Assembly: GCF_019655435.1 (NCBI RefSeq) | Contig: NZ_BPFH01000003.1 | Span: 434,001-498,000, forward strand | Source: Jannaschia pagri | GTDB lineage: Bacteria > Pseudomonadota > Alphaproteobacteria > Rhodobacterales > Rhodobacteraceae | Reading direction: 5' to 3' | Length of the DNA stretch: 64,000 bases | Translations under genes and position numbers: made by a program | Notes under the pieces: model-generated | What the model was told of the DNA's origin: nothing | Databases searched by the model: none | Seen by the model: only the letters and a program-made list of their open reading frames with translations | In this document: piece by piece, positions 29,386 to 33,160 of the stretch | How positions within the stretch are numbered: position 1 is the first letter of the stretch | Layout of the letters: the number at the start of each line of letters is the position of its first letter

Positions 29386-29982
29386 TTAGGGATCCCGCTG
29401 GGCCAGCCAGACGGTGGCGCCGCCGCAAGTTGGGTCCTCTGACCGGTGGTCACAAAGAGTGAACCCAGCGTCGCGGAGCAGGTTGCGATAGGTCCCGGGC
29501 GCGAGGCTCGCGTGGTAGAGCGGCTGACCTTCGAGGGTGCCATAGGACTCCCCGGCCGTGTGGCCTGTCGTGAACAGCAATGGCGCGCCAGGTTTGGCCA
29601 ATGACGCCAGCTGCGCGAACAGGGTGCGCTGCGCCGGGTCGGTCAGGTGAAACAGGCTGTGCCAGAGCAGGAGACCATCCGCCGGGGGCAGGGGCGGCAG
29701 GGCGCGCAGGTCCGCGGTGTGCCAAGTGTGCTCGGAGAAACGGGCGCTGGCGCGGGCGATAATGGCGGGCGCCCCGTCCACACCGGTGACGCGGCACCCC
29801 GCGTCGATCAGATAAGCGGCCATGGGGACACCGGTGCCGCATCCGAGGTCGAGGACGTTTGGGCCGGGCAGCCGCGTCCGAAAGGCGTCGAGCCAGGGAC
29901 GCTCGAACAGGTCTTGGCGGCGCGCGGCGGCGAAGGCTCCGGCGTGGCGGTCATAGAGGGAGATGACCTCCGGTTCAGCCAT
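29386..29982 (-). CDS. Class I SAM-dependent methyltransferase
   Basis: 198 residues. Motif I VLDLGCGTGVP is near residue 43, with the acidic end of strand 2 in VTGVDGAP near 65 and the motif IV region DGLLLWHSLFHLTD near 100. The start overlaps the end of the reductive dehalogenase-like gene by eight bases, so translation is coupled. No substrate clue. A small-molecule or thiol methyltransferase is most likely by size and fold. Confidence 0.85.
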   Translation of the reverse strand: MAEPEVISLYDRHAGAFAAARRQDLFERPWLDAFRTRLPGPNVLDLGCGTGVPMAAYLIDAGCRVTGVDGAPAIIARASARFSEHTWHTADLRALPPLPPADGLLLWHSLFHLTDPAQRTLFAQLASLAKPGAPLLFTTGHTAGESYGTLEGQPLYHASLAPGTYRNLLRDAGFTLCDHRSEDPTCGGATVWLAQRDP

Positions 29983-32900
29983 GTTTTGGCAGGTCGATGT
30001 CGATCACGCCACCGGGCTCGGCGGCGCGGCTACGGCAGAGGATCATGCGGGTCTCGCGTTGGGCCTTGGACAAGACGAAATCCCGGTGTTCGACCGCGCC
30101 CGATGTGACGCCGCAGGCGCAGACGCCGCAGAGGCCATCGGCGCATTTCACATCGACCTTCACGCCCGCCCGCAGCAACGCATCGGTGGCGGGTTCTTCC
30201 GCGTCGACCAGGATCTCGCGCCCATCGGTCAGGCGCAGGCGGAAGCTGTAATTGTCGTACTCTGGTTCTTCGGGGACGGAGAAATACTCCAGGTGCTGGG
30301 CGTCCTCTGGGTAGCCACCCGCTGCTGCGGCGGCGAGAACGGCGGACATGTAGCGATCTGGCCCGCAGGTATAGACGTGGTGCCCGGGGCGCCATTGGCC
30401 GAGGATGGCGTGCAGGTCCGCGCGGGTGCCTTCGTCGCTGACGTGCAGGTGGACGGCCTCGGCCCAGGGCATGGCAGCCAGGTCGTCGATGTAACCGGCC
30501 TGGGTGCGCGAGGGGACGGAGTAGTGGAGCGCGAAGGGCCGTCCAAGGGCGTGCAAGCGGTGGGCCATGGCGATCATAGGGGTGACCCCGATGCCGCCGC
30601 CCATCAGGTGGGTCATGGTGGCGTCTTCGACCAGGGGAAAGTGATTTACGGGCGGTGCGATGAACACCCGGCGGCCCGGCGTGAAGATCCGATGCAGCAG
30701 CTTGGAGCCCCCGCGCCCTGCGTCCTCGCGCAGGACACCGATCTGATAGCGGCTACGGTCGGCGGGGTCGCCGGACATGGAGTATTGCCGCAGGTATTCA
30801 GGGGCCACCACGATGTCGAGGTGGGCGCCTGCGGTCCAGGCGGGCAGGGGGCCGCCGTCCATGGCCTCGAACTCGTATTTGGTCACATCCGCTGACATGG
30901 CCTCTGCCTTGGCGACGCGCACGGGAATGACCGGGCTGTCGCGGTCGGCGGTGTAGCGGTGGACATGGCTCTCGTCCCCCGCTGCGATGCGGACGCGGTA
31001 GTCTTCGGGGGAGAGCATGGCGCCATAGGCCGCGATCCCCGCCTCCCTGTCCATGGGGTCAGGATAGGGATGTGGATGGGCGGCGAGCGGCGCAGGATAG
31101 ACGGCGAGGGTCTGATCCTCGTGCCGCAGGTCGAGGTCCGGTTGAATGTCGCGTGCGTTCACCGGATGGCGGGTGGGGCGATAGGCACCGTCCTCCGACA
31201 GCTCCAGATCCCACCACCATTTCTTGACCGGATTGAGGTTTCCGCGCCCCATCTTGTCGTCCAGCTTGGCCAAGATCGGCGCCGCCTGGGGCAGGTTCAT
31301 CGCGGCCCAACGGATCGGCGCCTCGGCAAACAGCCCCTCCAGGTTCCAGGGGCAGGTCTTCATACAGCGCCCACACATGGCGCCGCCTTCGGTCGAGACG
31401 CGGTAGGTGGCGCATTTCTGGCTGTCGGATTTCCAGATCTCATAGCCATTGAACATGCGCTTCGGCCCGGCGGTGATCGCGCCGGAGGGGCATTCGCGGG
31501 CGCATTTGTTGCAGGTCTCGCAGAAGCGTTGCAGGCCGAAGTCGATGGGTTTGTCGTGGGCCAGCGGCATGTCGGTGGTGACCACACCTGATTTCAGGCG
31601 GGGGCCGAGGAAGGGGTTCAGGATGACCTCTCCGATCCGGCTGACCTCGCCCAGGCCGGACAGCAGCAATAGGGGCGGTTGCAGGACCTCACCGTCGATG
31701 ACCGTATGGGCCTTGGCCTTGTAGCCAAGCGATCGGATCAGCCGCGCGACGACCCCGCCCAGGAGGGAAAACCGCAGATAGGCGCGCATGGACTGGGCGA
31801 CGCTGATCCAGTCGTCGCCCGAGGCGCCCTCCATCGTCTCGTAGCCCTGGTCCACGATCATGCTGATCGCTTGGTCGTGGGGCGGGTCGATGGGGGTGCC
31901 GGTGGCGTCGTGGCTATACCAGGCCCAATCGGGGCAGCGGCTGAGACCTACGGCGTCCACTCCGAGCCAATAGGCGGCGGCCTTCACGTTGGCGGCGTTC
32001 TGTGTCGGGTCGGTTGGGCGCGGTCCCGGATCGCTGTCGCCGTCTTGCAGCAGGGTGAAAGCGCCTAGCATCCGCCGCTGGGCCGAGGACGTGGCCGCCT
32101 TGCGCACGTAGTAGCCGCCGGTCGCCTTGGCCTGAACTGCTTTGCCCATGTCCCCGAATTGGATGCGCGCAAACAGATCGGCGCGCTTTGGCACGCGCGG
32201 GACGCGGGGTTCGTCGATATAGGTCGTCGGGCTGTCCACACGCTTGAGCGTCTCGAACGGATGGGGGCCAAGGTGATAGTCCCGCCGCTCGAACGGGTTG
32301 CGGTTCAGCCCCGAGCGGCGGCTGCCCATCCCGAGCCACCAGCGCGCATCGAAGGGCTGTGTCGTCGCCAAGGGGGCGTCGTGGGCCATCTCGAAGGTCG
32401 TGGTGACGGCGGCAATGCCGAAGCGTTGGCCCAGGAACGGGGTCACGACCTTACCATCGTTCAGGGTCAGCACCCCCGCCGCTACGCCCAATTTATGGAG
32501 GTCCACATCCGTGGACGTCTGGGTATGGGCCACGGCATCAAACCCCATGAGCCGCAGGTAGGTGGCCAGGATCACCGCCGTTTCCGCAGCGCGCAGGCAG
32601 GCACGATGGGCGCAGGCGTCTCGAATCCAGTCGCTGCCCGGCTCATCCGCGCGCGGGGGGCGGGGCTTCTCATCCAGGACCACAATGGCGTGGCCATGGC
32701 CCTCAATGCCCGAAGGCGGCGCATCCATCTGATCCCGGAGGTCAGCCATGATCGCGTCGATGCCCGAAGCCAGGGTCTTCGTTTGTCGTGTGCGGAGGGC
32801 TTGGGCCAGGGCGTCAATGCCGGGATTGCGCAGGGGCGTGTTGAGGTGGGCTGTACGTGGGACGGGCCCGATGCCCATCAGCGCAGCGTCGTTGAAGTAG

Positions 32901-33160
32901 CCAAAGGCCTTGAGGTGCTGGGCACGTTCCACCGGATCGTCGGGCACTTCGGACGGGACACCATTCACCAGGCCGTCGCGGATCGCATCCATGGTTGCCT
33001 GGTATTCGTCCATGGCACGGACAATCGGCCCGCCCGTGTCAAACGCCAGTGGGTCCGGCGGCGGCACCGCGCCGAGATCCGGCATCGGACCCCGCCGCAA
33101 TCGATCCAACGGAAAGGGACCAAGGTGGACCGCACGATCCTTGGTGGAGAAGACTTGCAT
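29975..33160 (-). CDS. Self-sufficient reductive dehalogenase fused to a flavin/[2Fe-2S] reductase
   Basis: 1061 residues from the ATG at 33160; an ATG at 33232 would add 24 uncharacteristic residues. In order: an N-terminal region (about 200-260) that repeats the cobalamin-core fold, the core (about 400-540, with YSHDATG near 415 and a GYKAKAHT stretch), and two [4Fe-4S] motifs (CETCNKCARECP near 545; a Cys, then CGRCMKTCPW near 595). A ferredoxin-reductase-type FAD/NAD(P)H module follows (RQYSMSGDPADRSRYQIGV near 795, GGIGVTPM near 855, CGPDRYM near 930) and a plant-type [2Fe-2S] domain (CADGLCGVCACG near 1005, last Cys near 1038). There is no Tat signal or membrane anchor partner. This matches the NAD(P)H-driven catabolic dehalogenases of the BhbA/NpRdhA group, active in aerobes. 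The substrate is likely a brominated phenolic (family knowledge). Confidence 0.9.
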   Translation of the reverse strand: MQVFSTKDRAVHLGPFPLDRLRRGPMPDLGAVPPPDPLAFDTGGPIVRAMDEYQATMDAIRDGLVNGVPSEVPDDPVERAQHLKAFGYFNDAALMGIGPVPRTAHLNTPLRNPGIDALAQALRTRQTKTLASGIDAIMADLRDQMDAPPSGIEGHGHAIVVLDEKPRPPRADEPGSDWIRDACAHRACLRAAETAVILATYLRLMGFDAVAHTQTSTDVDLHKLGVAAGVLTLNDGKVVTPFLGQRFGIAAVTTTFEMAHDAPLATTQPFDARWWLGMGSRRSGLNRNPFERRDYHLGPHPFETLKRVDSPTTYIDEPRVPRVPKRADLFARIQFGDMGKAVQAKATGGYYVRKAATSSAQRRMLGAFTLLQDGDSDPGPRPTDPTQNAANVKAAAYWLGVDAVGLSRCPDWAWYSHDATGTPIDPPHDQAISMIVDQGYETMEGASGDDWISVAQSMRAYLRFSLLGGVVARLIRSLGYKAKAHTVIDGEVLQPPLLLLSGLGEVSRIGEVILNPFLGPRLKSGVVTTDMPLAHDKPIDFGLQRFCETCNKCARECPSGAITAGPKRMFNGYEIWKSDSQKCATYRVSTEGGAMCGRCMKTCPWNLEGLFAEAPIRWAAMNLPQAAPILAKLDDKMGRGNLNPVKKWWWDLELSEDGAYRPTRHPVNARDIQPDLDLRHEDQTLAVYPAPLAAHPHPYPDPMDREAGIAAYGAMLSPEDYRVRIAAGDESHVHRYTADRDSPVIPVRVAKAEAMSADVTKYEFEAMDGGPLPAWTAGAHLDIVVAPEYLRQYSMSGDPADRSRYQIGVLREDAGRGGSKLLHRIFTPGRRVFIAPPVNHFPLVEDATMTHLMGGGIGVTPMIAMAHRLHALGRPFALHYSVPSRTQAGYIDDLAAMPWAEAVHLHVSDEGTRADLHAILGQWRPGHHVYTCGPDRYMSAVLAAAAAGGYPEDAQHLEYFSVPEEPEYDNYSFRLRLTDGREILVDAEEPATDALLRAGVKVDVKCADGLCGVCACGVTSGAVEHRDFVLSKAQRETRMILCRSRAAEPGGVIDIDLPKHG

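What the first reader, a model, noticed from the sequence alone, without database searches (positions are those of the whole stretch)
29975..33160. Single-chain, cytoplasmic, NAD(P)H-driven reductive dehalogenase in an aerobe-type genome
One 1061-residue gene joins a cobalamin-type dehalogenase core, two [4Fe-4S] motifs, a flavin/NAD(P)H reductase and a plant-type [2Fe-2S] domain, with no Tat signal and no membrane anchor partner. This is the layout of the catabolic, self-sufficient dehalogenases (BhbA/NpRdhA group), not of organohalide respiration. The electron path NAD(P)H - flavin - 2Fe2S - 4Fe4S - B12 is contained in one protein. Marine brominated phenols are plausible natural substrates.
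Basis: partly seen in the sequence, partly recalled or inferred. Interest (0 to 1): 0.8.

Follow-up and report, generated by a model that had tools for sequence, protein, structure and literature searches.

The report
Self-sufficient bromophenol-type reductive dehalogenase
The gene very probably makes a single-protein, NAD(P)H-driven, vitamin-B12 enzyme that strips bromine or iodine from phenols; it is a clear member of a family already studied in the laboratory and common in marine relatives of this bacterium, so it is sound but ordinary.

Summary
On the minus strand, 33160..29975, an intact 1061-residue ORF joins an RdhA core, two [4Fe-4S] motifs, a flavin/NAD(P)H reductase and a plant-type [2Fe-2S] domain, with no Tat-like signal or membrane segment. 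It is 50.5% identical to BhbA over residues 1-1057 and 38.8% to NpRdhA. Six NpRdhA active-site residues (F291, S422, M423, Y426, K488, R552) are identical here and in 109 of 109 relatives.

It is not rare: I count it in 152 of 394 sampled genomes of the family. No close neighbour recurs in more than 11 of 81 loci. The host genome has pobA, pcaD, pcaB and pcaH homologs, BluB and three cobalamin riboswitches. Substrate, oxygen tolerance and role in the cell remain inferred.

Two cautions. The 2026 'Roseobacter debrominase' Ros_A3X954 is a different, short enzyme. The statistical link to pobA disappears after conditioning on hmgA. Verdict: new member of a known kind, low interest.

The parts
29975..33160 (-). 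rdhA: self-sufficient reductive dehalogenase, 1061 aa
32126..33160 (-). residues 1-345: N-terminal region holding the vestigial duplicate of the cobalamin-binding domain
   Evidence: hhalign of residues 60-345 against 375-640: E 5e-20, 161 columns, 29% identity; control of 60-345 against 745-1055: E 1
32702..32866 (-). residues 99-153: stretch about 40 residues longer than in NpRdhA, with many residues invariant among 34 aligned sequences; possibly the insert that PMC10463259 describes for RdhA-reductase fusions (inferred)
31241..32038 (-). residues 375-640: cobalamin-binding core plus two [4Fe-4S] motifs (Cys 547, 550, 553, 557 and 583, 596, 599, 603)
31778..31780 (-). Y461 codon, equivalent of NpRdhA Y426
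31592..31594 (-). K523 codon, equivalent of NpRdhA K488
31400..31402 (-). R587 codon, equivalent of NpRdhA R552
30281..30928 (-). residues 745-960: flavin and NAD(P)H-binding reductase part (phthalate dioxygenase reductase type)
30023..30223 (-). residues 980-1046: plant-type [2Fe-2S] domain (Cys 1006, 1011, 1014, 1042)
29386..29982 (-). class I SAM-dependent methyltransferase ORF, same strand, its start overlaps the 3' end of rdhA by 8 bases; relevance unknown
   Evidence: no homolog (tblastn E 1e-10, over half its length) in the stretches held of 80 related loci

Best explanation
A soluble, cytoplasmic, self-sufficient catabolic reductive dehalogenase. NAD(P)H reduces a flavin in the C-terminal phthalate-dioxygenase-reductase-like module. 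Electrons pass through the [2Fe-2S] domain and the two [4Fe-4S] clusters to base-off cobalamin. The cobalt acts on the halogen of an ortho-halogenated (bromo- or iodo-) phenol while Tyr461 with Lys523/Arg587 binds and protonates the substrate, releasing halide and the dehalogenated phenol. In this host the likely use is to remove bromine from aromatic acids such as bromo-4-hydroxybenzoate or bromo-4-hydroxyphenylacetate, so that ordinary ring-cleavage pathways can consume them. Shown here: architecture, active-site residues, presence of some pathway and cobalamin genes. Inferred from relatives: electron path, halogen preference, substrate, role in the cell.
For: Homology: BhbA 50.5% over residues 1-1057, NpRdhA 38.8% over residues 1-709 (3e-158 by phmmer), PDR 2pia 5.5e-48. 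F330, S457, M458, Y461, K523, R587, eight 4Fe-4S and four 2Fe-2S cysteines kept in 109 of 109 relatives (two searches whose genomes partly overlap, so not independent). Internal duplication as in NpRdhA. Foldseek's first 14 hits for the predicted model are NpRdhA chains, then reductase-fused P450s and PDR. Tree of 85 rows: nests in a clade of 82 rows apart from BhbA plus Nitratireductor OM-1. The host has pobA (637 bits, cut-off 539), pcaD (311, cut-off 256) and pcaB (271, below its cut-off 356) behind it, pcaH (331, cut-off 296), BluB about 90 bases behind one of three cobalamin riboswitches. JtRdhA, of the same architecture, was purified and is NADPH-driven, debrominating and deiodinating (PMC10463259). 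In some relatives rdhA lies beside pobA (L125, 12 bases; L126; L127, divergent; L094, under 10 bases) or in the same stretch as hmgA (L146, L085).
Against: No assay or structure of this protein. Pfam's Dehalogenase model PF13486 gave no match at E 0.001. The AlphaFold model is poor (mean pLDDT 66.9, segments 487-521 and 540-608 below 50), so pocket geometry was not tested. In this window rdhA is not beside any aromatic pathway gene. rdhA-pobA co-occurrence (120 of 152 against 144 of 242, p 7e-5) vanishes within hmgA-positive and hmgA-negative genomes (p 0.18 and 0.31). JtRdhA's sequence could not be retrieved for direct alignment. Other pca genes and de novo corrin synthesis were not tested (two models tried for the latter were badly chosen).
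Confidence: 0.93

Rival explanations
1. A respiratory (organohalide-respiring) reductive dehalogenase.
For: Shares the TIGR02486 core and matches PceA 4uqu at 2.3e-34.
Against: No Tat-like signal, no membrane helix, no anchor candidate beside it, fused NAD(P)H reductase; far closer to the catabolic NpRdhA and BhbA.
Confidence: 0.01
2. An epoxyqueuosine reductase (QueG) or another Fe-S oxidoreductase of the class III cobalamin superfamily.
For: Weak match to TIGR00276 at 22.1 bits.
Against: RDH model 212.1 bits, over its cut-off; QueG far below its cut-off of 200; NpRdhA catalytic residues kept.
Confidence: 0.01
3. A narrower reading of the role, compatible with the best explanation and not exclusive of it: the enzyme serves mainly to debrominate or deiodinate tyrosine-derived 4-hydroxyphenyl acids of marine natural products, feeding the homogentisate route, rather than bromo-4-hydroxybenzoate feeding pobA.
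For: rdhA goes with hmgA more strongly than with pobA (134 of 152 against 134 of 242, odds ratio 6.0, p 2e-12; p 6e-6 and 8e-5 within pobA strata); hmgA, a MarR gene and a flavin monooxygenase lie in the same stretch in L146 and L085; JtRdhA turns over 3-bromo-4-hydroxyphenylacetate at 99.3% of its best rate and iodophenols at 66-72%.
Against: The test ignores phylogeny and genome size; the neutral control gene (phaC, 381 of 394) was too common to use; hmgA lies in the held stretch of only 1 of 81 loci, pobA in 2; 16 weak rdhA matches were counted as negatives.
Confidence: 0.3

Closest known systems
JtRdhA of Jhaorihella thermophila (Fisher et al. 2023, PMC10463259)
   Same: Same domain order by the paper's description: duplicated core, two 4Fe-4S, fused reductase with 2Fe-2S, no Tat signal, Y426/K488/R552 equivalents; marine bacterium. 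JtRdhA is about 39% identical to NpRdhA; this protein 38.8%.
   Different: JtRdhA has been assayed; this protein has not. Identity between the two not measured here.
BhbA of Comamonas sp. 7D-2, plasmid pBHB (NC_021077.1)
   Same: 50.5% identity over residues 1-1057, same architecture.
   Different: BhbA sits on an IncP plasmid near protocatechuate 4,5-dioxygenase, porin and substrate-binding-protein genes; here the gene is on a 575-kb contig (replicon type not determined) among methyltransferase, uronate and flagellar genes.
NpRdhA of Nitratireductor pacificus (PDB 4ras, 6zxu, 6zy0)
   Same: 38.8% identity over the dehalogenase part; six active-site residues identical.
   Different: NpRdhA lacks the reductase module.
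Ros_A3X954 of Roseobacter sp. MED193 (PMC13101508)
   Same: Also a Tat-less RDase of a marine Roseobacter, acting on 2,6-dibromophenol.
   Different: A short RDase without reductase; its printed Fe-S motifs CDICTKCADACP and CAICMRVCP are in L145 (392-codon reading, domain positions within 3 residues of the paper's), not in the MED193 counterpart of this gene, L047/L143. Reported as highly oxygen-sensitive.

Membership tests
Self-sufficient catabolic reductive dehalogenase (BhbA/JtRdhA) | RdhA core with corrinoid-binding domain | tested here: met
   TIGR02486 212.1 bits over cut-off 160.35; NpRdhA 3e-158; but PF13486 no match at 0.001
Self-sufficient catabolic reductive dehalogenase (BhbA/JtRdhA) | Catalytic Tyr and Lys/Arg of NpRdhA | tested here: met
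   Y461, K523, R587
Self-sufficient catabolic reductive dehalogenase (BhbA/JtRdhA) | Two [4Fe-4S] motifs | tested here: met
   Fer4_16 547-606; eight cysteines kept in 109 of 109
Self-sufficient catabolic reductive dehalogenase (BhbA/JtRdhA) | Vestigial duplicate of the core at the N terminus | tested here: met
   hhalign E 5e-20 against control E 1
Self-sufficient catabolic reductive dehalogenase (BhbA/JtRdhA) | C-terminal phthalate-dioxygenase-reductase and plant-type 2Fe-2S module | tested here: met
   2pia 5.5e-48 over 742-1054; Fer2 over cut-off
Self-sufficient catabolic reductive dehalogenase (BhbA/JtRdhA) | No Tat signal, no membrane anchor partner | tested here: met
   hydropathy and neighbouring ORFs only, no RdhB model searched
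Self-sufficient catabolic reductive dehalogenase (BhbA/JtRdhA) | Bound cobalamin, FMN and Fe-S clusters; NAD(P)H-coupled dehalogenation | not testable with these tools
   needs purified enzyme
Respiratory reductive dehalogenase | Tat signal peptide and membrane-anchor gene | tested here: not met
Epoxyqueuosine reductase QueG | TIGR00276 over its cut-off | tested here: not met
   22.1 bits against 200

The most novel reading that the evidence does not exclude
The mostly stand-alone self-sufficient dehalogenases of marine Rhodobacteraceae serve chiefly to debrominate tyrosine-derived 4-hydroxyphenyl acids feeding the homogentisate route, a widespread aerobic bromine-stripping step of marine organic-matter turnover; in this strain a possibly co-translated methyltransferase may act on the same phenols.
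Probability: 0.12. Interest if true: 0.45.

Novelty: new member of a known kind. Interest (0 to 1): 0.18.

Why it matters
It adds a well-conserved member to a family useful for aerobic removal of bromine from phenols. About four in ten sampled genomes of the host's family carry such a gene (152 of 394 by my count), which makes its natural role in the marine bromine cycle a fair and testable question. The protein itself changes no current view.

Tried and rejected
Respiratory RDase and QueG readings were rejected on signal, domain and score grounds. I first equated Ros_A3X954 with the MED193 counterpart of this gene (note); a search of that genome and the paper's Fe-S motifs showed it to be a second, short RDase, L145, and I withdrew the claim (note). 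A pobA association looked significant but disappeared after conditioning on hmgA; hmgA's own association may reflect kinship or genome size. phaC as a neutral control failed because 381 of 394 genomes have it. TIGR02484 and TIGR02485, tried as cobalamin markers, were badly chosen and say nothing. The AlphaFold model is too weak for pocket geometry; 34 of the 81 sequences available (80 named loci and the window) went into its alignment. A search for a conserved neighbourhood gave none; the first count failed to place rdhA in 17 loci and was redone, where 58 of 81 loci had 3 kb on both sides. Gene calls in scripts are heuristic (long ORFs by codon-position GC), so neighbour counts are approximate.

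Rows dropped: of 168 family genomes with a match at E 1e-60 or better, 16 with E between 1e-61 and 1e-73 were treated as not RdhA, because such values may come from the reductase domain alone; their alignments were not inspected. The other 152 have E of 1.5e-95 or better. Leaving the 16 out altogether did not change the pobA test (p 5e-5); they stayed in as rdhA-negative. Searches used E 1e-100 as the limit for pobA and hmgA.
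Full report
WHAT IS THERE. The minus strand carries an ORF of 1085 codons from GTG 33232, or 1061 codons from ATG 33160, to a stop at 29975. The ATG is preferred because it aligns with residue 1 of NpRdhA. Library searches find TIGR02486 (reductive dehalogenase, 212.1 bits, cut-off 160.35), a 4Fe-4S double-cluster domain at 547-606 and a plant-type 2Fe-2S domain at 980-1046. Pfam's own Dehalogenase model did not match at E 0.001. Against solved structures the best matches are NpRdhA (4ras, 3e-158, residues 154-734 plus 1-98), two self-sufficient P450s through their reductase modules, and phthalate dioxygenase reductase (2pia, 5.5e-48, residues 742-1054). 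The protein has no hydrophobic stretch of membrane-helix strength and no Tat-like h-region.

ACTIVE SITE. In the alignment, and again in a multiple alignment with 109 relatives, NpRdhA F291, S422, M423, Y426, K488 and R552 correspond to F330, S457, M458, Y461, K523 and R587, identical in all 109. The same holds for the eight 4Fe-4S cysteines (547, 550, 553, 557, 583, 596, 599, 603) and four 2Fe-2S cysteines (1006, 1011, 1014, 1042). The 109 rows come from two searches (29 loci, 80) whose genomes partly overlap, so they are not independent. Residue roles are from PMC10463259, sections 4 and 15. The N-terminal region is a degenerate copy of the core: hhalign gives E 5e-20 over 161 columns against E 1 for a control comparison with the reductase part. 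PMC10463259 names this duplication as a mark of catabolic RdhAs.

RELATIVES. In 394 genomes of the same family, nearly all of different genera, 168 match at E 1e-60 or better; 152 of these I count as RdhA, and 16 weak ones I set aside uninspected. The best 80 of 542 confirmed stretches in named genomes are 66-74% identical and nearly all from Rhodobacterales by their titles. Among 72,556 plasmid records, 8 carry a homolog at E 1e-60 or better, including BhbA (50.5%), Nitratireductor OM-1 (49.9%) and Ruegeria sp. TM1040 (70.3%). A quick maximum-likelihood tree of 85 rows puts the window protein inside a clade of 82 rows (SH-aLRT 100), apart from BhbA plus OM-1; its exact place in that clade is weakly supported. 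The host is probably a Jannaschia: G310, the one same-genus genome in the draw, holds its rdhA at the same contig number and coordinates as the Jannaschia marina genome behind L107. In J. marina the gene lies a few genes from partition genes of the plasmid RepA/ParB kind, both below the models' cut-offs, and Jannaschia sp. M317 has it on a 60-kb plasmid. Within the genus it has therefore probably moved.

STRUCTURE. A model from 34 sequences reached mean pLDDT 66.9, with 487-521 and 540-608 below 50. Foldseek still ranks 14 NpRdhA chains first (E 9.7e-47 to 1.0e-44), then reductase-fused P450s and PDR. I draw no conclusion on pocket geometry.

SURROUNDINGS. Behind rdhA on the same strand lies a class I methyltransferase whose start overlaps by 8 bases; no homolog was found in the stretches held of 80 related loci, and no NCBIfam model reaches its cut-off on it. 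Further on come glucuronate isomerase, an ORF that I read by eye as mannonate dehydratase (not scanned), a mannitol-dehydrogenase-type reductase, a GMC oxidoreductase, TRAP transporter parts and an IclR regulator, apparently a uronate cluster. On the other side come a flagellin-like ORF (not scanned), FlbT and a DUF1217 protein. None explains rdhA. In the 80 loci and the window no neighbour recurs widely: the commonest family within three genes of rdhA is in 11 of 81. The molybdenum hydroxylase set behind rdhA in 8 loci is given under things noticed.

PATHWAY CONTEXT IN THE GENOME. The genome holds pobA (637 bits, cut-off 539), followed by pcaD (over cut-off) and pcaB (271 bits, below its cut-off of 356), pcaH elsewhere and hmgA. 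BluB stands about 90 bases behind a cobalamin riboswitch, one of three. Debrominated 4-hydroxybenzoate or 4-hydroxyphenyl acids could therefore plausibly be consumed, and the cofactor's lower ligand made. Other pca genes and corrin-ring synthesis were not tested. One rdhA and one hit to the reductase part alone were found in this genome.

WHAT THE GENE IS FOR. In some relatives rdhA touches aromatic genes: pobA in L125 (12 bases downstream), L126 (same strand, a masked stretch between), L127 (divergent) and L094 (upstream, under 10 bases). In two more regions fetched, L128 and L129, pobA is about 10 kb away. hmgA, a MarR regulator and a flavin monooxygenase lie near it in L146 and L085. A fumarylacetoacetate-hydrolase family gene lies within three genes in 5 of 81 loci. 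L125-L129 and L146 were picked because coordinates looked close, and those lists show only the best matches, so they are examples, not a rate. Of the 80 named loci plus the window, 1 has hmgA and 2 have pobA in the stretch held. By co-occurrence, rdhA goes with pobA (120 of 152 against 144 of 242, p 7e-5) and more strongly with hmgA (134 of 152 against 134 of 242, p 2e-12). The pobA link vanishes within hmgA strata (p 0.18, 0.31), while the hmgA link stays within pobA strata (p 6e-6, 8e-5). Phylogeny and genome size were not controlled, and a neutral control failed. This hints at 4-hydroxyphenyl acids rather than proving them; JtRdhA turns over 3-bromo-4-hydroxyphenylacetate at 99.3% of its best rate.

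LITERATURE. PMC10463259 (abstract, introduction, sections 4, 10 and 15 read) describes this kind of enzyme: NADPH-driven, active on brominated and iodinated phenols, aerobic and anaerobic, with chlorinated ones only inhibiting. PMC13101508 (abstract, results part 1 of 2, phylogeny section, discussion and passages read) describes a Roseobacter debrominase that could be mistaken for the counterpart of this gene. The Fe-S motifs it prints are in L145, the short second RDase of that strain; it was reported as oxygen-sensitive. Searches joining reductive dehalogenase with homogentisate and marine, with bromotyrosine, or with 4-hydroxybenzoate 3-monooxygenase listed 1, 2 and 2 papers, none on such a link by title or start of abstract (listings only, in a library of openly licensed papers).

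VERDICT. A textbook self-sufficient catabolic reductive dehalogenase: observation confirmed, interpretation supported, novelty low. What would be new is its natural substrate, which the sequence does not settle.

Noticed in passing
window 29386-29982 (-): Methyltransferase ORF overlapping the rdhA 3' end by 8 bases; no homolog in the stretches held of 80 relatives.
   Followed up: partly
L145 (Roseobacter sp. MED193): Short RDase whose motifs match the published debrominase Ros_A3X954; the same genome also holds the long self-sufficient homolog L047/L143.
   Followed up: yes
L086, L089, L096, L097, L100, L104, L108, L109 (Ruegeria and Silicibacter): A three-gene molybdenum hydroxylase set stands as the next three genes behind rdhA in 8 of 81 loci; scanned in L086 only, it is of the xanthine dehydrogenase/4-hydroxybenzoyl-CoA reductase kind, below every cut-off.
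   Followed up: partly
L146, L085, L107/L138: hmgA, a MarR regulator and a flavin monooxygenase near rdhA in L146 and L085; a similar MarR gene directly follows rdhA in L107/L138.
   Followed up: partly
L138 (G310, Jannaschia marina contig): rdhA lies a few genes from RepA/ParB-type partition genes and beside what looks by eye like a toxin-antitoxin pair, suggesting a plasmid location.
   Followed up: partly
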